From NCBI GenBank assembly GCA_903927615.1, contig CAIYNU010000087.1:124001-188000 (forward strand): a stretch of DNA of 64,000 nucleotides, given 5' to 3'. This stretch comes from an uncultured Rhodospirillales bacterium (GTDB lineage: Bacteria > Pseudomonadota > Alphaproteobacteria > Azospirillales > Azospirillaceae). Below the pieces are notes generated by a model. That model saw only the letters and a program-made list of their open reading frames with translations, was not told where the DNA came from and did no database searches. Position numbers and translations under genes: made by a program. Positions 2,668-27,967 of this stretch are shown here, one piece after another (position 1 is the stretch's first letter; the number at the start of each line of letters is the position of its first letter).

Positions 2668-5016
2668 ATGAAAAGTCATGGCCAGATCCTGATGACTATG
2701 CTCGGAAGCCTGTCCCTGTTTCCTGCCGCCGCCGCCGCCGACGGCAGCGACGATAACGGCGCCCTCCGTCCACGCAACACGGTCGAGCTTGGGATTGGCT
2801 ATCAAAGTGAAAAATCCGCCGCGTTTGGCCGGTACACCGGGCAAGCCGAGCCGGGGCCGTTGGCCGTCAGCAATTTTACCAGTATCGGTGGCAGCGCCTG
2901 GGATTCCGGACAGACCGACACCTGGGAGGTGATGGGGACCGACCTGGGCTCGACCTCGCGCCGGGTCAGCGCAACCATGGGACAACAGGGACTTTGGAAC
3001 CTGTCAGTGCTTTTCGACGAGAGTCCCTTCCATCAGTCCGATACCGGGTCGGTGATCTTTAACCATGTGGGCAGCAATGTGCTGGGCCTGCCGTCGGGTG
3101 TTCTGACCCCATCCCAGACCAACGCACCCACCACCAACACCGCGACCGGCACAGCATCACAAGCGAACGGTTATACCCTGCAACGATTCCTGACCCGGCA
3201 GGATTTCGGGACCGACCGCAAAACCGAAAGCTTAGACGGCCGGTTCAAGCCGTCTGAAGACTGGACGTTCAACACCAGCCTCAGTCACGAGCACAAGGAA
3301 GGGCTTCAAGAGCGGTCCCTGGCGATCGGCGGTGGACGCAGCGGTGATTCGGTGTTCTTTCCACAGCCGGTCGACTACGATACCGATAATTTTGAGGCCA
3401 CTGCCAACTACAAACTCGACAATGTCTGGATGACGTTCGGCTACACCTTCTCCAAGTTCACCGACAACAACACCTCTCTCCTGGTCCCCAGTCCCTTCAC
3501 CGTCACCAGCAGCGCGACCACTGGCGCCGCGGTGTCCGTTAACGGGGCCCGGGTGCCGGTCGGCACCCTCAATCAAATCGCCTTGCCGCCAAGCAATATG
3601 GCCCACAACATCAATCTCGGTTTGACCGCCGCCATCACGCCGACCACGCGGCTGAATGTCGACTTCGGTTATGGCCTTCAAGTGCAAGACGACCCGCTGT
3701 TGCCATACGCCAGTTCGTCCCATCCCCTGCTGCCCGTGTTGGCCTCCCAATTGGCGCCGTTACCGCGAACCACGACCAATGGAGAGGTTGAGACCTACCA
3801 TGGCCAGGTCCGTTTCAGTGCCGAACCTCTGCCGAAGCTGGACCTGAGCGCAAGCTACAGCTACGACGGCACCGACGACAGGACGCCGAAATCTTTGTTT
3901 AAATCGGTTGATGAGGCGGAGGTGGCGTTGTGGAACCTCGACAATGTGCCCTACAGCTTTTCTAAACAAACCGCCAAGCTTGATGCCGGGTACCGCTTCT
4001 CGACCGGGACCAGGCTGGCCGCGACAGCGAACTTTGATGATACCACCCGCAGTATTGCGGAAGTCCTGAACCAGCAAACCGCCACCGGTCAATTCAAGGT
4101 GACCCAGACGATACCCTTCGGCACCGCTTCGGTCAGCTACCAACATGGGGTGCGGCGCGGCTCGACCGACCAGCCGGGCGCATTTTTTTTGGCCATGACC
4201 GGTACCGAACCAACCTCGACGCAGGATAACGCGCCATCCTTCCGTCGCTTCTATGAAGCGGATCGCACGCGGGACGGCTACAAACTTGGCTTTGAGGTGT
4301 CTCCCGCCGACACCCTGTCGATCACGCTGGCCGGTCGTCTGACCAACGACAACTATCCCCAGTCGCCGTTGGGTTTGCGACGGTCGGATTCCTGGGCGAC
4401 CGATGCCGATATCGGCTATTCACCGGTTCAAGGTCTGACGATACACGCCTTTTATACCTTCGAAGAGGTCGCCACGGATTCCAACGCTCTGGCTGGCGCG
4501 GGCTTCAGCCCCGACCCGAATGCACCGGTTCCTGGAACCGGAACCATCGCCTCGGTCGCCTATGCTTATGGGTATCATTTCGTCGATCGGGTCCACACCG
4601 CCGGCCTGGGGGCAACCTGGGATGTCATCCAAGAGACCTTGAAAATCGGCGTCGATTACGCAGTCAGCGCCGATTTCTCGGACGTCAAAAGCAAGGGCAG
4701 CGGACTCTTCAATATCGGCAACAGCACACTGACCAATGCTTTAGGATACGCGGCCAGTTCGTCGGTACCGACCGCCATGACTTTTTCCAATAGCGTTAAA
4801 CTATTTTGTGATTACACCTTTCTGCCGGGATTGACCCTCCGCTTGACCTACCGTTATGCTCAACAGGAAACCAATGATCCGCTTCTCGACACAGGCGCGC
4901 TGCCCAATGTCTCCGCTCCCGGTGTGACTGCCAGTTATCCTTATCTGTTCGCCGGAGAAACCAATCCCAATTACAATGTCCACTTGGCGGTGGCGTCGCT
5001 GATTTATAAATTCTAG
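2668..5016 (+). CDS. mtrB: Outer-membrane beta-barrel of MtrB/PioB family
   Basis: This 782-residue protein has a signal peptide (MKSHGQILMTMLGSLSLFPAAAAA) followed by alternating amphipathic strands rich in Tyr, Thr and Asn. It ends in phenylalanine (SLIYKF), the usual C-terminal signature of outer-membrane barrels. Length and position right after a decaheme cytochrome fit MtrB/PioB, the sheath that holds MtrA in the outer membrane. The N-terminal CXXC pair known from Shewanella MtrB is not seen; the only cysteine I notice is near the C-terminus (LFCDYTF). The start has a good GAGGTG site. No outer-surface cytochrome (MtrC type) or HiPIP (PioC type) gene follows; the next gene runs the opposite way. 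Confidence 0.88.
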   Translation: MKSHGQILMTMLGSLSLFPAAAAADGSDDNGALRPRNTVELGIGYQSEKSAAFGRYTGQAEPGPLAVSNFTSIGGSAWDSGQTDTWEVMGTDLGSTSRRVSATMGQQGLWNLSVLFDESPFHQSDTGSVIFNHVGSNVLGLPSGVLTPSQTNAPTTNTATGTASQANGYTLQRFLTRQDFGTDRKTESLDGRFKPSEDWTFNTSLSHEHKEGLQERSLAIGGGRSGDSVFFPQPVDYDTDNFEATANYKLDNVWMTFGYTFSKFTDNNTSLLVPSPFTVTSSATTGAAVSVNGARVPVGTLNQIALPPSNMAHNINLGLTAAITPTTRLNVDFGYGLQVQDDPLLPYASSSHPLLPVLASQLAPLPRTTTNGEVETYHGQVRFSAEPLPKLDLSASYSYDGTDDRTPKSLFKSVDEAEVALWNLDNVPYSFSKQTAKLDAGYRFSTGTRLAATANFDDTTRSIAEVLNQQTATGQFKVTQTIPFGTASVSYQHGVRRGSTDQPGAFFLAMTGTEPTSTQDNAPSFRRFYEADRTRDGYKLGFEVSPADTLSITLAGRLTNDNYPQSPLGLRRSDSWATDADIGYSPVQGLTIHAFYTFEEVATDSNALAGAGFSPDPNAPVPGTGTIASVAYAYGYHFVDRVHTAGLGATWDVIQETLKIGVDYAVSADFSDVKSKGSGLFNIGNSTLTNALGYAASSSVPTAMTFSNSVKLFCDYTFLPGLTLRLTYRYAQQETNDPLLDTGALPNVSAPGVTASYPYLFAGETNPNYNVHLAVASLIYKF

Positions 5017-5072
5017 TCTTCAACCCGGGCGCCCGCGGCACCGGGCCTCACGGCTTGCTGGGACCGAACCGC

Positions 5073-8000
5073 TCACTCTTGATCGCCGTCCGGGGTCCCC
5101 AGGTTCGACAGCATCGCCTCCACCGCCGCGGCCAGACCAACCGCCAGTTCGATCGCGTCCGCGTCGGATTGGCGCGCGGCGCGCTCGACCCGGCTTGCCA
5201 GGGCTTGCAGCTCCGATGCGACCAGGGTTCCGGCCGTGCCTTTGACAGCGTGGGCCAGTTGACCGATCCGTTCCAGGTTGCCGCCCCCGGCGGCGGCCCG
5301 CAGGGTTTGTGCGGTTTCCCTATGGCTGTTCACAACGGTTGCGATCAGCCGCCCGATGAAGTCATTCCGGTTACCGTAGCGCGCCTTCAACTTCTGAAGG
5401 TCAACCAGCGGCGGGTTGGCCCGAACGGTCGGACCGCCGGTGTTCGGTTTGGTATGCCGGAGAACGGTGGTCACCAGCACATCGTGATTGACGGGCTTGA
5501 CGACGCATTCGGCCATGCCGGCCTCCAGACAGCGGCGCCGTTCCGCCTCCATGGCATGGGCGGTCAGACCGATCACCGGCAGGGTGCCGGCCAGTGAGGT
5601 GACGGCGCGGGCCAGGTCATAGCCATCCATTTCCGGCATCTGAATGTCCGTGATGACCAGATCGAAGGCCTGGGCGCCCCGCTGCCGAAGATGGTCCAGC
5701 GCCAGCCGGCCGTTGCCGAAGCTGGCCAGTCGGGCACCTTCGCTGCACAGCATGTCCTCCAGCACCAGCCGATTGATCTCGTTGTCCTCGGCCGCCAGGA
5801 TGGACAAACCGACCAGGCGCGCCCTCGGCTCAGAGCCCGTGGCGGCGGCGATGGCCTGCCTCGGTGCGGACAGCGCCGACACCAGATGGCGGGCACGAAG
5901 CGGCCGTTCAATGACCGTAACCCTGTCCCACAAGGACCGCGGAATCTCACCCCGGTCCGGCGCGGCGACCACCGCCACCGGTCGGCCCCGCGCCAGTTCG
6001 CCTTCGACCTTGCACTGAACGGTCGCGTCCTTCAGGCTTGCCCCGTCGGCGACGATCATGACGGCGGCCTCCGGAACCCGGTCGAGGTCCTCCACCGGAT
6101 AACATCCCGCCAGGACGCGCGTCAGCGACGCCACTTCATCGGCAGGCAATCCGAACAGCGCCACCGGGTCGGCAGGGGCCGGCGCCCGGGAAACCGCTCC
6201 CACCAGCGGCAGCCGGACTTCGAACGTGCTCCCGTCTCCGGGCGTGCTCCGGACCGTGATGGTCCCCCCCATCAATTCGACCAGGGTTCTGGAAATCGAC
6301 AGCCCCAGCCCGGTACCGCCGAATTGCCGGGTGGTCGAGCCATCGGCCTGCTCGAACGGCTGAAACAGCCGCTCGACGGCGTCCGGGGCGATGCCGATGC
6401 CGGTGTCGACCACCCGGAACAGCAGTTGATCGCCGGCGCGGGCCGCCGACAGCACCACCAGGCCGCCGGGCGGGGTAAATTTGACCGCATTACTCTGCAA
6501 ATTGAGCAATATCTGTTCGATCCGCTTGGAATCGCCCTGACACCCCATGGGCAGGTCGAGATCCTCCTCGACCCGGAACCGCAGTTGCCTCGCGCAGGCG
6601 CGCACGGCCACGGTCCGCACCGAGCGGTCGATGACGTCGCCCAGGATAATGGGCGCGATCTCCAAGCTCATCCGGCCGGACTCGATTTTCGAGAAATCGA
6701 GGATGTCGTCAACCACACCCAGGAGGCCCTGTCCGGCATCCAGAATGCGGTTGAAGGTCTGAAGTGACGCCCCCCCGCTGCTCTCCCGGGCGCCGATTTG
6801 CGCCAGGCCGAGCACCGCATTCAAGGGCGTACGGATCTCGTGGCTCATATTCGCCAGAAATTCACGGCGCACATGGGCCAGCCGTCTGGCTTCGTTGAGC
6901 GCCTCTTCACGGGCCGCTTCGGTCGCTTTACGAAGGGAGATGTCGGTCATGAACGCGATGAACCGGGCCGGCACGCCCGCCCCGGCGGGACGGTAATGCA
7001 GGACGATGTCGACCGGGATGCGGCGTCCGTCCTTGGTCTTCTGGACCGTTTCGAACGCCACACGGCACTGGCGACTGAATTCCCCGACCGATTGCGCAAA
7101 TTTCACGTCGTCGAACTGCTCGTCGATATCCGGAATCCGCATCCGCAGCATTTCGTCCACGGTGTAGCCGAGCATTTCCGCGGCGAACCGGTTCACGTAC
7201 AGAAAGCGGCCGGTGTCCACCTCCACCCAGTGTATGCCGATGCCGACGCTGTCCATCGCGAACTGGGTAACCGACAGTTGGTCGTTGGCGGCCTGAAGGT
7301 CCGCCGTGCGCGCCGCGACCAGCTTCTCCAGATGTTCGCGGTACTGGGCCAACTCCGCTTCGGCCGCCTTGCGCTCGGTGACGTCGAGAACGATGCCGAT
7401 GTACCGGAGCGACCCGTCGGGGGCCCGAACCGGCCGCCCGCGACTGAGCAGCCAGCGATCCGGAGCCCCGGAGGCGCTGAAAACCCGCCACTCGACTTCG
7501 AACTCCTCGACCCGGGCGGTGGCCTCGGCGATCAGGGCCAGCACCCGGTCGCGATGGTCCGGATGAATCGCGGCCCGCCAGGTTTCGTAGGACGGCTCAC
7601 ACAAGTCCGGGACCAGATCATAGAGCCGCCAGATTTCCTCGGACCAGCGATTCCGGTCGGAACCCAGGTCCCACTCCCAGGTGCCGGCGCGGGCGGCGTC
7701 CAACGCCACACGCAGACGCTGCTCGCTGTCGCGCAACGCCGCGTTCGCCGCTTCGGTGCGGGTGCGGGCGGCAACCGCGTCTTCCATCAGATTCAGGGCC
7801 GCCACCCTGGCCCGGTGTTGCGCGTTCAGGGCTTCGGCCTGGGTTGCCTGCAAGGCCAGTTCGGCCCGCTTGCTGTCGGTGATGTCCTGGATGGTGCCCA
7901 GCAGTTCGACGATGGCGCCACCGGCGCCGCGACGCGCTTCGGTGCGGGCGACGATCCAGCGTCGGCCGCCGTCGGGACGCACCAGTTCGGCGTCGCATTG

Positions 8001-19853: not shown

Positions 19854-21899
19854 ATGACCATCAGCAGACAGGCGCAAATTGGGTTTTCGTTGATTATATT
19901 AATTGCAATACTGACGGTGACAATCTCAATGATTGTCAAGCACGACAATATCACTAGCATTTCTTCTGCTCAAATATTGAACAAGTCCGCCCAGGATACG
20001 CTACTGCCGTTGGAACGTCAGGCGCGCATTGCTCAATTTGACGTGATTCAAGTCCAACAGTTCCTTAGTGACGCTTCCGCCACCCATCATCAGGACAGCT
20101 TTGACGACGCCGCCCGCTATGCCAAGGACTTTCACGACCGGATCGCCGCGATTCACACGATTCTGGCCTCATCGGGCGCGGAACTGGCGCTGGGGGGCAA
20201 GACCAATAAGTTGAAGAATGCGCTTGAGCGGGCGGAACGGCTTTTTCCCGATTACAATGACGTCGGGATCGACATGGCCAAGACCTACATCGCCAATGGC
20301 ATTGATGCCGGTAACGAATTGATGAAAAAATTCGATCCGATGTCGGACGAGATCAACGACACCTTGCAGCTTTTGGTCGATACCGCGTCTGAAGCGAACG
20401 ATTCCGGCGCCGAGTTGGTCTCGAAGCGGATGACCGCGGTCCAAATCGCGACGGAAGAGGGCAGTTTATGGGTGGTGATCCTGATCGCCGTGCTGCTGGT
20501 GGCCTCGGTCCTGATTGCCGTTCAATTGGTCATCTTCAGTATGCCGCGACTGACCGCCATGACCGCGGCCATGCGGCGTCTGACCGAACACCACGACCTG
20601 ACCGTAGAGGTTCCGGGCGTCGGCCGTGCCGACGAAATCGGCGAGATGGCCAAGGCGGTCCAGGTCTTCAAGGGACACGCCGTTGAAAACCAACGGCTCA
20701 AGAGGCTCCAGGACGAGGAGATCCTGGCCAAGCAACGCCGCCAGGAAGAGGCCGAGGAGTTGATCGATATGTTCGGCTCCAGTGTCTCGGGGGTCTTCGA
20801 CAGCCTGTCCCAGTCCTCGGCGACCATGGCCGCTACCGCCCTGACCATGACCACGGCGGCGGCGGCGACCAATACCCAGGTGAACATCGTCACCCAAGCC
20901 ATCACGCGAACCACCGAAAACTCTCAATCGGTGGCCTCGGCGTCCGAGCAACTCACCGCGGCGATCACGGAAATCGGCCGGTTGATCCACACCGCGTCCG
21001 ACACCGCCCGGCACGGCGCGGAACAGTCGGAGGACGTCGCCGCCAAGGTGGCGGCGCTGCATCAGGCCTCCGAGCGCATCGGCAGCATCATCCAGATCAT
21101 CTCGGACATCGCCTCCCAAACCAATCTGCTGGCGCTCAACGCCACCATCGAGGCAGCCCGCGCCGGCGAGGCCGGCAAGGGCTTTGCGGTGGTGGCGAGC
21201 GAGGTCAAGACGCTCGCCAACCAAACCCAGCGCGCAACCGTGGACATCTCCGATCAAATCGGCACCATCCAAGGCTCGATCGGCAACATGGTCGGCGCGG
21301 TCCGTCTGGTCAGCCAGACGATCCAGGACATCCATCACGCCACCAACGAGATTGCCGCCGCGGTGGTCGAACAGCAGAGCGCCACCAACGAAATCGCGCG
21401 CAATGTTCAGTTTGTGTCAGCAAGTGCAGAAGAGATCGGCCAGAGTATCGGGAAGGTTCATGATGCCGCCGACCAGACCAGAACCGCCTCGGTGGAGGTC
21501 GGAGACGCCTCCCGTTCCATGGCCGGGCAGGCGGAGAAGCTCAGCGGCGAGGTCCGGGACTTCCTGTCGGCGATCCGCGGGGCCGGCAGCCGTCATGAAT
21601 TCCGCCGCCTGACCCTGGACAGTCCGGCCCGCATCACCGCGGCCGGCCAGGTTCACCAGGCCCAGGTCAAACAACTGTCCATTGGCGGCGCCTGGCTTGG
21701 GGTCAGCATCAACCTGCCCCTGGGCTCACCGGTGACGCTGGAGCTGAACGGGGTCTCGCGGCCCATCACCACGCGCGTGGCGGGCATCTCGAACCGGGGC
21801 ACGCGCCTGCAATTCCCCATGGACACCGCACACCTGGCCTTCATGACCAATACCCTGGAGCAACTCCATCGCCGGGCCGGTTCCGTCACCACGGCTTAG
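19854..21899 (+). CDS. Methyl-accepting chemotaxis protein with C-terminal PilZ-like domain
   Basis: This 681-residue chemoreceptor has TM1 at about 8-26 and a helical periplasmic domain (about 30-205) of the four-helix-bundle type. TM2 is at about 206-230, followed by HAMP and the MCP signalling domain ([26 protein letters not shown]). The last ~100 residues form a PilZ-like domain with RHEFRR (RXXXR) and QLSIGG where PilZ has D/N-X-S-X-X-G. Loss of the acidic or amide residue may weaken c-di-GMP binding. MCP-PilZ fusions are known from Azospirillum and relatives, where they tie motility to c-di-GMP. The start has AGGAG 6 bases upstream. Confidence 0.9.
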
Positions 21900-22128
21900 T
21901 CAGGTGCGTCACCATCTCCGGCGTAATCGCCCGGCCGGTCGCCGCCGACACCCGCGCAGCCGCCACGATACAGGCGTGGGTGCGGGCAGCGGCGGCGGTC
22001 AGGACCCGCATGCGCCGCACGGCCAGCAGGGTCTCGAGGTACGCATCCACAATAAAGTCATCGACATCGGAGTCGGGTGCGCGGTCCTGCACGCCATCAC
22101 CCGTCCGGTCAGGGGCCTGGGTCGCCAT
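21886..22128 (-). CDS. Small hypothetical protein downstream of rdrB
   Basis: This 80-residue protein has an acidic N-terminal part ([19 protein letters not shown]) and an alanine-rich helical part ([24 protein letters not shown]). I see no membrane segment and no known domain. The ATG at 22128 has a weak AGGTG site; a TTG at 22170 could extend it. It lies 90 bases after rdrB on the same strand and overlaps the end of the convergent chemoreceptor gene by 14 bases. It could be a third member of the defence operon or unrelated. Confidence 0.42.
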
Positions 22129-22218
22129 GGCACCTGAAATGGGTGCCGCCGGCGGAATGTCCACCCCCAACCGGCCCTGACTCCCAAAGAGCCGACGAGT
22201 CTCCGCCCGTCGGCGCCC

Positions 22219-24864
22219 TCACGGCGGCGGATAGGTCTTGGTGCCGATCACCCCCATCAGGTCTTTGCCGGATGCGGGCACGGTGAAGCGGCTGGCCAGC
22301 CCGCACTGTCGGGCGGCCTCGAGCCAGGCATCGACATTGGGGCCGTCGACGCCGGCACCGGCCAGCGCGTCGGCCAGAAGCTGGTATTCCTCGGGCAGCG
22401 TGGTGGCGAAGGTGATCGGGTCATCGGAGCCGATACAGACCCGCACCGGCGGCGCGGTGGTGGCCATCCCGGCCGGCGGACACAGACGCCACAGCGGGTG
22501 GGACGTCAAATCGCCGAGATGCCCGATCAGCAGATTGGAACTGGGATTGATTTCGACGACGATTCCCCGGGACGCGATTTCGCCCCGGACGTGCTCCTGA
22601 AGCGCCGTGACCAGCGGCACCTCCGGCTCGATCTCGATTTTTTTCAACTGCTGGGCGCGGTCATGCACCATCCGATCGGTCAGCCACCGGTACACCAACT
22701 CCCGCCGCAACGCCTCTTGCTCGTCCAGAGGCACCGGGGCGTAACGCCCGTCGGGAAAGCCCACAATCTTGCGCAACCCGGCGTCATGCAGGGCGTCCCA
22801 CCACGTCTGGAGTTGGTCGGCGCTGAGGGGACGATCGAACACTTGGCGGCCCAGCCGCACCAGTTCCTGGTCGATCCAGCCCAACCAGGAATAGAAGGCG
22901 TTCGGCGCGCGCAACCCCACCCGCCGGGCCCACAGCAGATCCAGCAGCCGCTCGCCGGCCGGGACCAACAATTTTCGGGAGCGCAGGGCCCATTCGCGAA
23001 CACTCACGCCCAGGGCCACCGCGTGGCCGATCCGCGCCCCGTCGCCCAACTCCAGTTGATCCACCGCTTCGTCGATCCGGCGCAGCCCGCCCAACAGGTG
23101 AACGTAGTCTTCGCCGGCGTGAACCGTCAGGCCCAGGGGCGGCGGGCTGTTCCCGTCCCGCGCCAGCAGCACGGCCCGGGCCCGGTGTCCGGCCGCCTGG
23201 ACATGCTGAACCAGCGGCGTGAGCACCCACAGCGGAATGGCCAGTTCATCGGTACACAGATCGATGCCGCGCACCCGTTCCAGCATCCGCGGGTAGGCGT
23301 CGAGCAGCTCCGCCAGGGCGGTGGCCAGGACCCGTTGTTTTTTATAATAGTCAGCGAAACGATAGCCCGTGATGTTCGCCGCCGGATCGTCGTGGCCACC
23401 CTTGGACCAGGCTGCCGGTCGTCCCGCTTCGGCGTCAGTGCCGCGGCTGCGGGACAGGTGGAAGACAATGCCCACCTCGGGTCCGCCGGCCGGCGCTGGC
23501 CCGGGGGATGCCGGTCCCCTCAGTCCCCGGGCCGCCTGGTCGACGGCGCACACCACGTCCCGCATCTTTTGGACGCTCTCTTCGGGCACCAGGCGAACCT
23601 CCAGGGAGCGCAGCCCGGGTCCGGCCAATGTTGCCGCCATCTGAACGAACGTCTCGTTCTTTAAGGGCTTCCTGGGTGGGCCGAGCCGGGCATAGGTCCG
23701 CGTGAACCATTGGAGGCCCGGGACCATCGGGCGTTGGACGACGTGCCGGTAAAACAGAACCCGGCATCGCACGGTCTGCCAGAATAATTGTGCAAAGAGC
23801 GGGTCCGTTTGGCCGGCGGCCCCCAGGTACCCGAAGGCCGCGACGGTATAGCCGAAATCCGGGTGGGCCTGAGCGGAGGAACCGAACCACCAGCCCATCG
23901 GGTCCACGTCACCGCCCGCCGGACCGGCATGACCGCGACCAATCCACCGGTCATAAAGATGTTGAAGGGGCTTAAACAGGCTCACGTCCGGGCGTTGACC
24001 CGCCGCCAGGGCAGACACCGCCTGCCACAGGGCTGCGATGGCGGAGCTGCCATAGTGGGCGACCAGCTGGCCGTTGACAGAGCCATGGACGAAGTCCCGC
24101 AACCCAGCCGGGTGAAACGCGGTCTGCTTCAGGAATTCCGCCAGCACCAGGCGGGTCACGGCACCGGCCAACAGCAGCGGCCCCAGGTCCCGGCCCTCGT
24201 CCCAATCGGCGCCGGGACTTTGCAGGAAGTCCGGCTCGACCGACAGATCCGCCAAAACCCGCATGGCCGAGGACCACAGGGACGGAAAGGTCATCGCCGC
24301 CTTCAAGTGCAGATGGGGCTCGGCGAAGCCCCGATCGGCCAGCCGGGCCTCCAGCGCCGGGGACACCATCGGGAGACGCTCGCAACACGAGCCGGCGGCG
24401 GCCAGCAGCAGATCCGGCGGAAGCGAGAAGCTATACCAGCGCCACAGCCGGCGCTGGGCCACTTCGTCCTGGGCCCGGCTCGGCTTCAGCCGCGCCTCGC
24501 CCGGACCGCCGGTGATCAGTTCAGCCGCCGCCCGCGCCAGCAGCCCGGCCAGCGGCACCTCGGGCGACCGCCCCGGGTGGCGATCAGGGCCGTCGAACCA
24601 CAGGCAATCCCGCCTCAGCACCAACTCATCAACCGACATGCCGGGAAAGTGGGCGAGCAACGTCCGTTCGGTCTCCCGCCACAGGGCGATGGTCGGAGAC
24701 GTGTTCCCGAAAGGCCGCTTTTCGAGACACGGGTCCAGCGCGATCATGGCATCGGCAAACGCCGTCGTGCCGGCGAACGGCGCCGCCAGCATTTCGGCCA
24801 TCAGATGCTCAATGGGAAACGCCGAAGTCCGCAACCCCGTCGCCTGGCCGCCATGGGCGGTCAT
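22219..24864 (-). CDS. rdrB: RdrB-like split adenosine deaminase of RADAR defence
   Basis: This 881-residue protein carries adenosine deaminase active-site motifs spread widely apart. HLH is at 184-186 (metal ligands), HAGED at 582-586 (catalytic Glu), RIGHA at 611-615 (metal His), then EINPSSN, and GSDDP near 825 (metal and catalytic Asp). Ordinary adenosine deaminases are about 350 residues; the ~400-residue insertion between HXH and HAGE is the arrangement known for RdrB, which deaminates adenosine nucleotides or RNA during phage infection. Its ATG overlaps the stop of an RdrA-like ATPase (ATGA), the gene pair that defines RADAR. The N-terminal ~170 residues are unassigned. Composition is GC-rich, unlike the 3' part of its partner. 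Confidence 0.85.
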   Translation of the reverse strand: MTAHGGQATGLRTSAFPIEHLMAEMLAAPFAGTTAFADAMIALDPCLEKRPFGNTSPTIALWRETERTLLAHFPGMSVDELVLRRDCLWFDGPDRHPGRSPEVPLAGLLARAAAELITGGPGEARLKPSRAQDEVAQRRLWRWYSFSLPPDLLLAAAGSCCERLPMVSPALEARLADRGFAEPHLHLKAAMTFPSLWSSAMRVLADLSVEPDFLQSPGADWDEGRDLGPLLLAGAVTRLVLAEFLKQTAFHPAGLRDFVHGSVNGQLVAHYGSSAIAALWQAVSALAAGQRPDVSLFKPLQHLYDRWIGRGHAGPAGGDVDPMGWWFGSSAQAHPDFGYTVAAFGYLGAAGQTDPLFAQLFWQTVRCRVLFYRHVVQRPMVPGLQWFTRTYARLGPPRKPLKNETFVQMAATLAGPGLRSLEVRLVPEESVQKMRDVVCAVDQAARGLRGPASPGPAPAGGPEVGIVFHLSRSRGTDAEAGRPAAWSKGGHDDPAANITGYRFADYYKKQRVLATALAELLDAYPRMLERVRGIDLCTDELAIPLWVLTPLVQHVQAAGHRARAVLLARDGNSPPPLGLTVHAGEDYVHLLGGLRRIDEAVDQLELGDGARIGHAVALGVSVREWALRSRKLLVPAGERLLDLLWARRVGLRAPNAFYSWLGWIDQELVRLGRQVFDRPLSADQLQTWWDALHDAGLRKIVGFPDGRYAPVPLDEQEALRRELVYRWLTDRMVHDRAQQLKKIEIEPEVPLVTALQEHVRGEIASRGIVVEINPSSNLLIGHLGDLTSHPLWRLCPPAGMATTAPPVRVCIGSDDPITFATTLPEEYQLLADALAGAGVDGPNVDAWLEAARQCGLASRFTVPASGKDLMGVIGTKTYPPP

Positions 24865-27524
24865 GGCGATGGCTCGGCATCTCGCTTGAAAGGCTCGAGG
24901 TCGCGCTCGGTGGGAATAAAGGCCCCTTCCAAAAAGTTATTGAAGGGATGTTTTAACCCATTAACTACTGCATCAAGCACCATTATCAACTTTTTTAAAT
25001 GTTCTGGCTCTGAATTAATAATTCGTTTATCACTTTGTCTAACAACTGCTAGCGCATTTTTGGGTGGTTCTTTTTGCAAAAAAATATCATTCAAGTCGTC
25101 CTCAATCTCATCAGACTTAAGAAAGTTTATCAGGTATTCTAGTTTATTATCATCACTTCGAAATATAATCATTATATTATCATTCATCAATATATTTTTC
25201 AATTTCTCCTTATTACTGTAATCACTTTGCAATATCTTTCTGGTCAAATTCATTCTTAATTCCTTAGGCAACACGTGCAAATAAGCTAGTACTGGCGATA
25301 TGTTGGCACAGAGCGTCGCTCCAGTCTCTGTATTAATTTTGCCTCCTTTAGACGCGGAAAAAAAATCTTGCGCTCTCATTCTTCGAATATTTTCCATAAT
25401 AGTCACGTCTTTTTGAAGATATTCCCTAACGCTAACGAGTATATCTATACTTAAGTGAGTTTCATTTTCAGGTGCGAAGAGCACCACCACTCGAGCTAAA
25501 GTATTACGGTATAATTCCAGGTCAACGATTGGATATAATTCGCTATTTTCCACTACTTGGATAAATCTACCTAACAGTTTGATCAAACGTAGAGACGTTT
25601 GATTACGCCAATCATCCCGATATGGCTCATCTAGAACAACCTCAAGAATTGATGTCAGCCATGCCAAACCACATTGCTTCTCTTCAGCCTCTGAAACGTA
25701 CCGGCGCCAATGGCGATCGAATCGCTCACAGTCACGAAAGGTCCGCCACCTCGGCATCGGCCATATGATATCCGTATACTGTTCGCCCGTACCCCACCTG
25801 GCCCACACTCCCGGGGCAGGGTCCGACTGCGTATAGGGTAACGGGCGCTGTCTCTGGTCGCTTCCGTCTAGCCCGGCGAGGAGATCATGGGCAAGCAAGA
25901 TGCCGGCCGCCAGACGGCGGGGCAGTTCGACACCAAGAGTCTGCGTTTGCTCATCATCCTCTTTTTGCTGTTTTTCGTTCAACTCATTCTTCTGTCTCCG
26001 AGGTGAGGTCTGGTCGGCACCTCTTGCGAACACACGGGGCGGACCAGACGCGACAGAACTTTTTAATTTTTCATATTCAAACTTGGTGGACACCGGCGCT
26101 CGTATAAATTCATACTCAACGGTGATATTCGTCTCAAAATCGACGGTACCATTTCTGTAACCGTCGAGGGCCTTATCAAGGCGATCGCGCACCGCATAAG
26201 GCAATTGCCACTCTTCCTTGATCTGGCGCCTCAGCTCCTCCAACACGCTGCCAACAACCCGACGATTGAATTCATTTTCGCTCTTATCCTTAATGGAAAC
26301 TTCTCCAAAGGATTTTAGTATCCTGTAGATATCAATGACTTGACGATGAGTCCCCGACAGCCATTGGGCGCTTTCGGACGGGATTTGGTGTTCCAACAGG
26401 AACAGTTCTGAGAAAGATATCTTCCGGTCTTTCGCCATCTCCCGGAATCGGAGAACCTTTAAAGCATCCAGCTCCTGCCGGAGCGTCTTATCATCTTCGC
26501 CGATTTTGAGTTCCAGCGCATCGGTAAGCGATATTGCCGCCAAGCGAGCCCGTTGGCCCGGGGGCAACAGCTTGCGCAAATTGTTTGCGGCGATCTCCCA
26601 GGCACTATTCAGTATCTCCGTAGAATTCGATCCCTTTGAATCCGCGAGCTTCCACAATTCCCCTTCGGTTTTCAGTTTGAGCACCGTTTCGGCAATGCGG
26701 ATATTGCCCGCCACCAAAAAGAACAGTCTGGGTGTCGTCACCATGCGGATCAGGCGCAACAGCTCCAGACAATGGGCGGGCGCCAGGTCAAAATCGTCCA
26801 CCGGCAGCACAAAGATATGATCTTGCTCGCTGTTGTCACTGGCCACGAGCCAAGCAAGCCCATTCATGACCTCGGCGAAACGCCCATGCAGGTTAAGGCC
26901 AGCCCTTTCCGCCTGCATGGTGGACAGCGCCCTGGCTTGGGCGTCGCCTTTATGTTCGCAACCGGCCGGACGTTCCCACACCAAGGCAGCGTCGTTCTGC
27001 AACTGCGCCAAGTTGGTCACCACCTCGGCCAAGGGGCTCTTACTGCCGAGAACGGCCGACAGGGGTGAAATGACTTTCATCTTGGCATCGAGAATTCGCT
27101 CGAGACGGGCGAGAATGGCCGCGAACAGGTTGATACCCTTGGACAAGGGCTCCATGTCCAGGGTCTCCAGCCAGATCACACGCCGCCTTCGGTCATAAAG
27201 TCTTTGGACGGCATCAGACAACGACTCTTTGTTTTGATCATCCCGGGACGTCAAGTCCATCAGGCTCAGCAGAACCGAGCTTTTTCCGGTGCCGCGATCA
27301 CCATCGATAAAGGCCAGTTGGCTATGGCGATTGGTATCCAGGGTCGGCGAGGGAATTCCGTATCGATCTTTACGGCGATCCTCGTTGATCTCCTTGACTT
27401 TGGGAACCGCATCAAGGGCATCGACCAGCCATTTCGCCACGGACTCGGCAGCCGTCTTTTGGGTTTCGCTCAAATCGTCCCATTTCCGCGGAATCGCTTC
27501 GATGCGGCGGCTGTCGTTGCTCAT
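24861..27524 (-). CDS. rdrA: RdrA-like P-loop ATPase of RADAR defence
   Basis: This 887-residue ATPase has Walker A GDRGTGKSS (about 75-83), a Walker B-like VLPVDDFDL (239-247), and FFLVAGN (268-274) in the sensor-1 position. The rest is long and mostly helical without a recognised domain; residues 520-545 are charged and low-complexity (RRQKNELNEKQQKEDDEQ). Size, P-loop position and coupling to an RdrB-like deaminase match RADAR RdrA, which forms a ring that assists the deaminase. The 3' third (about 24890-25700) is AT-rich by eye, quite unlike neighbouring genes, and suggests horizontal acquisition. Another class of STAND-like ATPase is possible but the pairing argues against it. Confidence 0.82.
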   Translation of the reverse strand: MSNDSRRIEAIPRKWDDLSETQKTAAESVAKWLVDALDAVPKVKEINEDRRKDRYGIPSPTLDTNRHSQLAFIDGDRGTGKSSVLLSLMDLTSRDDQNKESLSDAVQRLYDRRRRVIWLETLDMEPLSKGINLFAAILARLERILDAKMKVISPLSAVLGSKSPLAEVVTNLAQLQNDAALVWERPAGCEHKGDAQARALSTMQAERAGLNLHGRFAEVMNGLAWLVASDNSEQDHIFVLPVDDFDLAPAHCLELLRLIRMVTTPRLFFLVAGNIRIAETVLKLKTEGELWKLADSKGSNSTEILNSAWEIAANNLRKLLPPGQRARLAAISLTDALELKIGEDDKTLRQELDALKVLRFREMAKDRKISFSELFLLEHQIPSESAQWLSGTHRQVIDIYRILKSFGEVSIKDKSENEFNRRVVGSVLEELRRQIKEEWQLPYAVRDRLDKALDGYRNGTVDFETNITVEYEFIRAPVSTKFEYEKLKSSVASGPPRVFARGADQTSPRRQKNELNEKQQKEDDEQTQTLGVELPRRLAAGILLAHDLLAGLDGSDQRQRPLPYTQSDPAPGVWARWGTGEQYTDIIWPMPRWRTFRDCERFDRHWRRYVSEAEEKQCGLAWLTSILEVVLDEPYRDDWRNQTSLRLIKLLGRFIQVVENSELYPIVDLELYRNTLARVVVLFAPENETHLSIDILVSVREYLQKDVTIMENIRRMRAQDFFSASKGGKINTETGATLCANISPVLAYLHVLPKELRMNLTRKILQSDYSNKEKLKNILMNDNIMIIFRSDDNKLEYLINFLKSDEIEDDLNDIFLQKEPPKNALAVVRQSDKRIINSEPEHLKKLIMVLDAVVNGLKHPFNNFLEGAFIPTERDLEPFKRDAEPSP

Positions 27525-27690
27525 GGCGATCGCTTTCCCGTCCGTGACTGGTTCACCGTTCTGTCATGACGCGCGGGCAACCGCAACGGCAAAACAGACT
27601 TTCACGGGTGGTTGGCCATGGGACTCGCGGCGCTGGGAGCGCATCGGGCGGTCTGCATCACATGGTATGCATAACGATACCCCCTCCCCC

Positions 27691-27791
27691 GGACCGCGGG
27701 CGTCCCGCCCGCCCCTTCCTTTTGGGGCATCAGCAAAGGCCCACGGATAACCACGGGGCACACAAAAAGGCGGGCGGGACGCCCGCGGTCC
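27691..27791. repeat. Paired REP-like palindromes in inverted orientation
   Basis: A 23-base arm (27691-27713) and its exact reverse complement (27769-27791) flank a 55-base spacer. Each arm is itself a hairpin (GCGGGC, loop GTCCC, GCCCGC). Related copies occur near 53346 and 59091. The pair sits between the start of the RADAR operon and a truncated efflux gene, as expected for a BIME/REP-type element at a recombination junction. Confidence 0.8.
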
Positions 27792-27823
27792 CGTTCACGC
27801 TCGCCCCCTGAGCCCCGCCTCTT

Positions 27824-27967
27824 CATGGCCGCCGCCAGCAGATCAAGCCCCGAATGCGCCGCTTCCGCCAGAATCGCCAGGCCGCCGGTCATCAGACCCA
27901 CCACCAGCTTGGTGACGGTCAGAATGACGGTCCCGTGCTCATCCGACCCCCCGCCCTGCCCGATCAA
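27824..27967 (-). pseudogene. Truncated N-terminal fragment of a cation diffusion facilitator
   Basis: About 48 residues resemble the first transmembrane part of CDF metal exporters: TKLVVGLMTGGLAILAEAAHSGLDLLAAAM, with the E-A-X-H-S-X-X-D pattern. After that the frame runs into the palindromic repeat and low-complexity residues. No further CDF sequence (second HXXXD, cytoplasmic domain) is found in the window. The gene appears cut when the RADAR/repeat segment arrived or during a later deletion. Confidence 0.6.

What the first reader, a model, noticed from the sequence alone, without database searches (positions are those of the whole stretch)
22219..27524. RADAR-type anti-phage locus (rdrA-rdrB)
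Sequence: a P-loop ATPase of 887 residues overlaps by 4 bases with an 881-residue protein carrying adenosine deaminase motifs (HLH, HAGED, RIGHA, SDDP) split by about 400 residues. Established: this pairing and the split deaminase define RADAR, which edits adenosines during phage infection. Inference: this is a RADAR system in an alphaproteobacterium, possibly divergent from those studied.
Basis: partly seen in the sequence, partly recalled or inferred. Interest (0 to 1): 0.8.

Follow-up and report, generated by a model that had tools for sequence, protein, structure and literature searches.

The report
Divergent RADAR anti-phage gene pair
This is a two-gene bacterial defence system against viruses of the known RADAR kind, from a deep and little-known branch, and some of its relatives show that the probable virus-sensing end of one protein is swapped between bacteria like a cassette.

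Summary
Two intact minus-strand genes overlap by 4 bases: rdrA (887 aa, P-loop ATPase) and rdrB (881 aa, split adenosine deaminase). Profiles, predicted folds and gene order place both in RADAR. RdrB hits the NCBI RdrB model (E 7e-46) and its model aligns to E. coli RdrB over 666 residues (Z 34). RdrA's Foldseek matches at E <= 0.001 are all solved RdrA chains. Both lie far below NCBI's naming cut-offs, as do 9 of 10 relatives tested for each. The RdrB belongs to a small deep clade. In two of four sibling genomes the site holds a cation-efflux gene, of which the window keeps about 46 codons. So this is an ordinary, divergent, horizontally acquired RADAR, which most likely deaminates ATP/dATP on infection rather than editing mRNA.

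Odd codon usage of rdrA led further. In some relatives the RdrA C-terminal lobe, a proposed phage sensor, is replaced as a cassette between the AAA+ domain and the rdrA/rdrB junction, while rdrB and the AAA+ part stay alike. The window's rdrA has an AT-rich lobe ending at that junction. RADAR's unknown trigger could be tested with lobe chimeras.

The parts
24861..27524 (-). rdrA: AAA+ ATPase, 887 aa
   Evidence: NCBIfam RdrA 46.8 bits, E 1.6e-12; Foldseek: all 17 PDB matches at E<=0.001 are RdrA chains
26295..27524 (-). RdrA residues 1-410, AAA+ module (pLDDT mostly above 80 up to about residue 330)
   Evidence: Z 23.2 to 8hr8_F, 305 residues aligned, model 6-410
27279..27302 (-). Walker A of RdrA (residues 75-82)
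26793..26798 (-). Walker B DD of RdrA (residues 243-244)
24861..26294 (-). RdrA residues 411-887, C-terminal helical lobe (proposed sensor)
   Evidence: Helical but low confidence; no relative at E<=0.001 in 397 other genomes, none in phages or plasmids at E<=0.01
24861..25724 (-). AT-rich tail of rdrA (codons 601-887): GC3 0.34 against 0.77 expected
22219..24864 (-). rdrB: adenosine-deaminase-fold protein, 881 aa
   Evidence: NCBIfam RdrB 157.2 bits, E 7e-46; model pLDDT 82.4, pTM 0.89; Z 34.1 to E. coli RdrB over 666 residues
24307..24315 (-). RdrB HLH (residues 184-186), equivalent to E. coli H152/H154
   Evidence: E. coli numbering from PMC9994260
23107..23121 (-). RdrB HAGED (582-586), equivalent to E. 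coli H498 and E501
23020..23034 (-). RdrB RIGHA (611-615), equivalent to E. coli H530
22417..22428 (-). RdrB SDDP (813-816)
22071..27829 (.). Stretch with no DNA counterpart at the homologous site of sibling genome G388: the rdrAB insertion/replacement
27830..27967 (-). Remnant (about 46 N-terminal codons) of a cation-efflux (CDF) transporter gene that is whole in siblings G386 and G388
   Evidence: Pfam Cation_efflux E 1.6e-4 (22.0 bits, under the gathering score 26.6) over residues 14-46 of ORF 27602-27967; 82-87% DNA identity to the sibling genes over 85-89 bases
27691..27791 (.). REP-like inverted repeat pair (27691-27713 and 27769-27791) between rdrA and the CDF remnant

Best explanation
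A complete RADAR system of a deep, sparsely sampled clade, acquired horizontally by replacing most of a cation-efflux gene. RdrA is a ring-forming AAA+ ATPase whose helical C-terminal lobe senses an unknown product of phage infection. It then docks on RdrB. RdrB is an adenosine-deaminase-fold enzyme with RdrB-type extra regions, and it converts ATP and dATP to ITP and dITP, poisoning the nucleotide pool and stopping the phage. Shown here: gene structure, homology, predicted fold, catalytic residues, pairing in relatives, the occupied site, and exchange of the RdrA lobe in some relatives. Inferred from the studied RADARs: assembly, substrate and defence. Inferred here: that the lobe sets which infections are sensed, and that the window's lobe was itself exchanged.
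For: Profiles; PDB phmmer of RdrB to E. coli RdrB 1.1e-23; family profiles to E. coli RdrB 2.9e-147, RdrA 8hr7 6.5e-72 and S. suis RdrA 1.3e-25; fold matches; H184, H186, H582, E585 and H614 invariant in 55 of 55 RdrBs (window included), D814 and D815 in 90% or more, equivalent to the E. coli tetrad and catalytic Glu; a tandem partner in 10 of 13 fetched loci (the other three had matched only the common deaminase segment); a same-strand ORF of at least 300 aa just upstream in 72 of 79 named-collection loci (6 of the 7 exceptions start at or within 0.8 kb of a contig end); the site holds a CDF gene in two siblings.
Against: Both proteins fall far below NCBI's equivalog cut-offs (157 against 800, 47 against 600), RdrA alone matches nothing in the PDB by sequence at E<=1, and the RdrA C-lobe could not be modelled with confidence. 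Sensor 1 is N274 where E. coli has D253, and the E. coli RdrB 3-fold interface glutamates E595-E597 have no acidic counterpart in the aligned stretch. No other defence gene was seen among 10 neighbouring ORFs scanned.
Confidence: 0.9

Rival explanations
1. A RADAR-derived pair that has left phage defence, or is decaying, and acts if at all on nucleotide metabolism.
For: Host-like codon usage of rdrB would fit long residence; the sensor-1 change and the missing interface glutamates; no neighbouring defence gene among 10 ORFs scanned.
Against: Both frames are intact and the catalytic residues are kept. The gene is sporadic: of the 5 genus genomes searched, only the window's and G386 have an RdrB match, and G386's is a different RADAR. 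A helper ATPase-sized gene lies beside it in nearly all relatives.
Confidence: 0.07
2. An unrelated deaminase system, for example a Cad1-like or ordinary ADA enzyme beside an unrelated AAA+ protein.
For: The deaminase core alone also matches ADAs (Z about 23-26) and Cad1 (Z 22-26).
Against: RdrB aligns over 666-682 residues to solved RdrB against 306 to the best ADA. Pfam shows only A_deaminase, no CARF domain, at E<=1. The partner's Foldseek matches at E<=0.001 are all RdrA; next best by VIA is BrxC at Z 12 against 19-23.
Confidence: 0.02
3. RdrA's C-lobe is not exchanged but merely evolves fast, and AT-richness reflects selection on codon use before the rdrA/rdrB overlap.
For: N-part identity exceeds C-part identity in 376 of 387 pairs; a mild C-third GC3 drop is common (56 of 69); unlike lobes keep weak homology (local z 8-36); L094/L108 and L067/L118 show a gradual rather than stepped decline.
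Against: Lobe retention is nearly bimodal: of 27 pairs with like rdrB and rdrA-N DNA, 14 keep at most 4% of the lobe as alignable DNA, 9 keep 82-100%, 4 lie between (pairs share loci). The C-lobe tree contradicts the RdrA-N and RdrB trees in Campylobacterota. L113 and L097 align in both flanks, rdrA-N and rdrB but not in the lobe.
Confidence: 0.1

Closest known systems
RADAR of E. coli P0304799.3 (PDB 8fnt, 8fnv, 8fnw)
   Same: Tandem rdrA-rdrB, AAA+ domain with Walker A/B, RdrB fold with extra regions, His tetrad and catalytic Glu
   Different: 19% identity over 666 structurally aligned residues for RdrB; sensor-1 N for D; no EEE patch; C-lobe not alignable with confidence
RADAR of Streptococcus suis SS993 (RdrA, PDB 8fnu)
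   Same: Experimentally active RADAR whose RdrA is under 20% identical to E. coli's (PMC9994260), so the window's divergence is not outside the known range; VIA Z 19.2 to the window's RdrA
   Different: No S. suis RdrB was matched in the PDB; its relation to the window's clade was not tested
NCBIfam RdrA/RdrB equivalogs (NF041743, NF041744)
   Same: Best-scoring NCBI family for both proteins
   Different: Scores are far under the cut-offs; only L104 of 10 relatives tested passes each
Uncharacterised RADAR pairs of Vicinamibacterales (L057), Acidicaldus organivorans (L058), Polyangium fumosum (L074) and an unnamed bacterium (L064)
   Same: Same RdrB clade for L057, L064, L074 (quick tree: pair with L057 98, with L064 82, four rows 100); RdrB identity 30-37% for these three; RdrA AAA+ part 26-32% for all four
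   Different: RdrA lobes share little with the window's: local z 8.5 (L058), 6.5 (L057), 15.5 (L074), -0.9 (L064); L058's rdrB reads as two ORFs in different frames and was not in the tree
Cad1 (CARF-adenosine deaminase, type III CRISPR)
   Same: Deaminase core fold; ATP to ITP (PMC11645235, title and abstract start in the search listing only)
   Different: The window's protein lacks CARF, has RdrB extra regions and an RdrA partner

Membership tests
RADAR | rdrA and rdrB encoded in tandem | tested here: met
   4-base overlap, same strand
RADAR | RdrA AAA+ domain with Walker A, Walker B, sensor 1, sensor 2 | tested here: met
   GDRGTGKSS, DD243-244, R394; sensor 1 is N274 instead of D; Z 23.2 to solved RdrA
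RADAR | RdrB zinc tetrad and catalytic Glu of adenosine deaminases | tested here: met
   H184, H186, H582, E585, H614 align to E. coli H152, H154, H498, E501, H530
RADAR | RdrB-specific extra regions around the deaminase core | tested here: met
   666-682 residues aligned to RdrB (model 25-863) against 306 to the best ADA; the three insertions were not traced one by one, and the E. coli EEE interface patch has no counterpart
RADAR | Two-layered RdrA with helical C-terminal lobe | tested here: inconclusive
   Predicted helical but pLDDT mostly below 65 beyond residue 340
RADAR | RdrA heptamer docking on RdrB dodecamer | not testable with these tools
   No complex prediction or experiment available
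RADAR | ATP/dATP to ITP/dITP conversion and phage defence | not testable with these tools
   Needs bench work
NCBIfam equivalogs RdrA and RdrB (naming cut-offs) | Score at or above 600 (RdrA) and 800 (RdrB) bits | tested here: not met
   46.8 and 157.2 bits; 9 of 10 RdrA and 9 of 10 RdrB relatives tested also fail, so the cut-offs look fitted to one lineage
Cad1 (CARF-ADA) | CARF domain fused to the deaminase | tested here: not met
   Only A_deaminase found by Pfam at E<=1

The most novel reading that the evidence does not exclude
RdrA is a modular receptor. Its C-terminal lobe is a swappable recognition cassette, exchanged by recombination between the end of the AAA+ domain and the rdrA/rdrB junction, while the ATPase and the deaminase are kept. 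This lets a RADAR retarget to new phages. The window's RdrA carries such a lobe from an AT-rich source in a GC-rich host.
Probability: 0.6. Interest if true: 0.75.

Novelty: new member of a known kind. Interest (0 to 1): 0.5.

Why it matters
The locus adds a deep clade to RADAR and shows that current NCBI naming cut-offs miss most of the relatives tested here. More important, what RADAR senses is stated to be unknown (PMC9994260, Limitations), with the RdrA C-terminal domain only hypothesised to be the sensor. Cassette-like exchange of exactly that lobe is what a recognition module in an arms race should show, and it supplies natural pairs for chimera experiments that could find the trigger.

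Tried and rejected
Scans of genome contigs and viral contigs with RdrB alone found no relative; the alignment-based scan did. phmmer of RdrA alone against the PDB found nothing at E<=1; the profile did. I considered that the low GC of rdrA was amino-acid bias: against host codon usage it is not (z -17 for codons 601-887). I considered that low-GC rdrA was peculiar to the window: it is partly a family trend (rdrA GC below rdrB GC in 57 of 61 pairs, GC3 in 50 of 61), so only the size of the effect is special. I looked for lobe variety within E. coli: 21 of 5426 genomes hold the full locus at 99.9-100% identity and 2 more hold 15% of it, so no variety there. The window's own lobe gave no donor in plasmids, phages, 397 other genomes or viral contigs. 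Rfam found no RNA family in window 15000-36000. The careful RdrB tree did not finish; the quick tree is used, and L064, L031 and L112 have long branches in it. The groups AU-tested were chosen after seeing identities, so those p-values are post hoc; the RdrA-N test against L091+L113 is weak (p 0.034), L128 was left out of the lobe tree, and the outgroups have long branches. The pairs share loci and are not independent; the 15 pairs were picked by hand. L105 and several loci with short upstream ORFs (L068, L078, L093, L095, L096, L107, L124) may have a mis-called or broken rdrA. Rows under 600 or 700 aa, or cut at a contig start, were dropped from the counts by the scripts; L058 (split rdrB) was dropped from the RdrB tree and from the paired counts. 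L032's RdrB, cut by its contig end, was left out of the tree.

Full report
OBSERVATION. Two overlapping minus-strand genes are present as described: 24861-27524 (887 aa) and 22219-24864 (881 aa), sharing 4 bases.

IDENTITY. RdrB: NCBIfam RdrB 157.2 bits, E 7e-46 (cut-off 800); PADLOC RdrB E 4e-36; Pfam A_deaminase E 1.6e-7. RdrA: NCBIfam RdrA 46.8 bits, E 1.6e-12 (cut-off 600); PADLOC RdrA E 5.9e-10. Neither reaches the naming cut-off, but of 10 RdrB and 10 RdrA relatives tested only L104 passes (852.7 and 606 bits), and for all 20 the RdrA or RdrB model is the best NCBI family. PDB phmmer links RdrB to E. coli RdrB (1.1e-23); RdrA alone finds nothing at E<=1. Profiles of the family reach E. 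coli RdrB (2.9e-147), RdrA of 8hr7 and of E. coli 8fnt (6.5e-72, 7.8e-72) and S. suis RdrA (1.3e-25).

FOLD. The RdrB model (55-row alignment) has pLDDT 82.4 and pTM 0.89. Foldseek's first 8 matches are RdrB chains (E 1.1e-26 to 2.1e-22), then ADAs at 2.2e-5 or worse. VIA gives Z 34 over 666-682 residues for RdrB against Z 26 over 306 for the best ADA, so the match extends well beyond the core. The RdrA model (48 rows) has pLDDT 61.4, with the AAA+ part mostly high and the C-terminal lobe helical but low. All 17 Foldseek matches at E<=0.001 are RdrA; VIA Z is 19-23 for RdrA and 12 for the next family, BrxC.

ACTIVE SITES. H184, H186, H582, E585 and H614 are invariant in 55 of 55 RdrBs, D814 and D815 in 90% or more, and the first five correspond to E. 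coli H152, H154, H498, E501 and H530 (numbering from PMC9994260). RdrA keeps Walker A, Walker B and R394; sensor 1 is N274 where E. coli has D253.

RELATIVES. In the class, 16 of 385 genomes had any match, the window's own included; 10 of the 16 matched only within residues 759-866, the common deaminase segment, and 9 of those 10 were not examined in context. Of 13 loci I fetched, 10 had the two-gene pair. An alignment-based scan found 308 relatives in genome contigs, of which 79 loci were kept. A same-strand ORF of at least 300 aa lies just upstream of RdrB in 72 of 79; some of these ORFs are short or set apart (for example L068, 402 aa, 337 bases away). Of the 7 without, L066, L087, L092, L098, L101 and L131 begin at or within 0.8 kb of a contig end, and L073 is unexplained. 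I tested 10 upstream ORFs by profile (10 of 10 match RdrA, E 9.9e-6 to 1e-181) and aligned 47 with the window's RdrA, where Walker residues are nearly invariant. In the quick RdrB tree of 84 rows the window pairs with L057 (Vicinamibacterales, 98), joined by L064 (82) and L074 (100), beside a group of 23 rows, nearly all Bacillota. Sibling G386 has a different RADAR lineage (L034).

SITE. Two of the four siblings show a whole cation-efflux gene here: beside the DUF4340 gene in G386, beside the chemoreceptor gene in G388, where the contig then ends. G387's contig ends before the site, and G385's neighbour was not identified. In the window DNA similarity to G388 stops at 22070 and resumes at 27830, and the resumed part is the first ~46 codons of that gene. 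So rdrAB most likely replaced most of it. A REP-like inverted pair lies at 27691-27791; the 23-mer has 9 places in the genome at up to 1 mismatch, two of them these.

MECHANISM. PMC9994260 reports that RdrB converts ATP/dATP to ITP/dITP, that RNA editing incompletely explains defence, and that the RdrA C-terminal domain may be the sensor. By homology the same is inferred here. Assembly, substrate and defence are not shown.

CODON MOSAIC. rdrB matches host codon use (GC3 0.80 and 0.81 observed, 0.81 expected). rdrA does not: 0.65 against 0.80 (codons 1-410), 0.58 against 0.78 (411-600), 0.34 against 0.77 (601-887, z -17) (host use from 12 neighbouring genes). The lowest of 47 host 100-codon bins is 0.57. 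In Acidicaldus L058 GC3 falls from 0.62-0.84 to 0.16-0.48 at about codon 350, and its first rdrB ORF is at 0.78. Over 69 pairs, the window included, the RdrA C-third is below the N-part in 56 (median -0.039) against 40 for RdrB (median -0.007), paired p 3e-4; most effects are small.

LOBE EXCHANGE. Of 387 RdrA pairs with RdrB identity of at least 33%, the N-part is more alike than the C-part in 376. Of 15 pairs looked at along the protein, several show steps near residues 250-400: L097/L113 goes from 72-92% through 48-57% to 18-41%, L102/L120 from 56-86% to 19-44%. Others keep the lobe: L091/L113 stays at 54-94% to about residue 750, and L062/L080, L084/L106, L109/L116 and L059/L060 stay alike throughout. 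L094/L108 and L067/L118 decline gradually. In DNA, L113 and L097 align over the upstream flank (84%), rdrA-N (78%), rdrB (80%) and downstream flank (88%), but not from 4106 to 5552, the lobe. L102/L120, and L123/L132 but for one 65-base piece, likewise lack alignment over the lobe and resume at the rdrA/rdrB junction. Of 27 pairs with rdrB cover above 0.7 and rdrA-N cover above 0.5, 14 keep at most 4% of the lobe, 4 keep 16-45%, 9 keep 82-100%. In Campylobacterota, RdrB and RdrA-N join L091 with L114 (98/100, 95/96) and reject L091 with L113 (AU 1e-47 and 0.034), while the C-lobe joins L091 with L113 (100/99) and rejects L097 with L113 (1e-6) and L091 with L114 (3e-6). Fast evolution alone does not give such conflict. 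These groups were picked after seeing identities, and the outgroups have long branches. RdrB itself is unevenly alike in some pairs (L097/L113), so exchange may not be confined to the lobe. For the window, exchange is inferred from codon use and the weak lobe match to its relatives; no donor was found.

IN PRINT. Searches of the paper library for RADAR with RdrA/RdrB, adenosine deaminase, sensor and C-terminal domain, and for hypervariable/recombination terms (not every hit was listed) showed PMC9994260 as the only dedicated RADAR study among the titles listed; it notes low conservation outside the ATPase site but, in the parts read, no lobe exchange. Most subscription papers, including a companion 2023 structural study that I recall, are not held, so this is not a claim of absence from print.

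VERDICT. An ordinary RADAR in kind, divergent in sequence; the lobe exchange seen in its relatives is the part worth following.

Noticed in passing
L113:4106-5552 against L097 (and L102/L120, L123/L132): Cassette-like replacement of the RdrA C-terminal lobe, with rdrA-N and rdrB alike on both sides (and, for L113/L097, both flanks).
   Followed up: partly
L058:6989-9746: Acidicaldus organivorans rdrB reads as two ORFs in different frames; frameshift or assembly error; its rdrA shows a sharp GC3 cliff at about codon 350.
   Followed up: no
window 27691-27791: REP-like inverted repeat beside the truncated cation-efflux remnant; 9 places of the 23-mer in the genome at up to 1 mismatch.
   Followed up: partly
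window 19854-21899: Chemoreceptor with a PilZ domain; the genome gave 87 matches to this one protein, so it looks rich in chemoreceptors.
   Followed up: no
L153-L159: Seven IMG/VR viral contigs encode RdrB-like proteins: RADAR on possible prophages or mis-assigned contigs.
   Followed up: no
L034 (G386, same genus): A sibling genome holds a RADAR of a different RdrB lineage, which suggests that the genus acquired RADAR more than once.
   Followed up: partly
L088: A contig titled Candidatus Heimdallarchaeota carries a RADAR-like pair (671 and 794 aa) grouping with a Crocinitomicaceae row; may be mis-binned.
   Followed up: no
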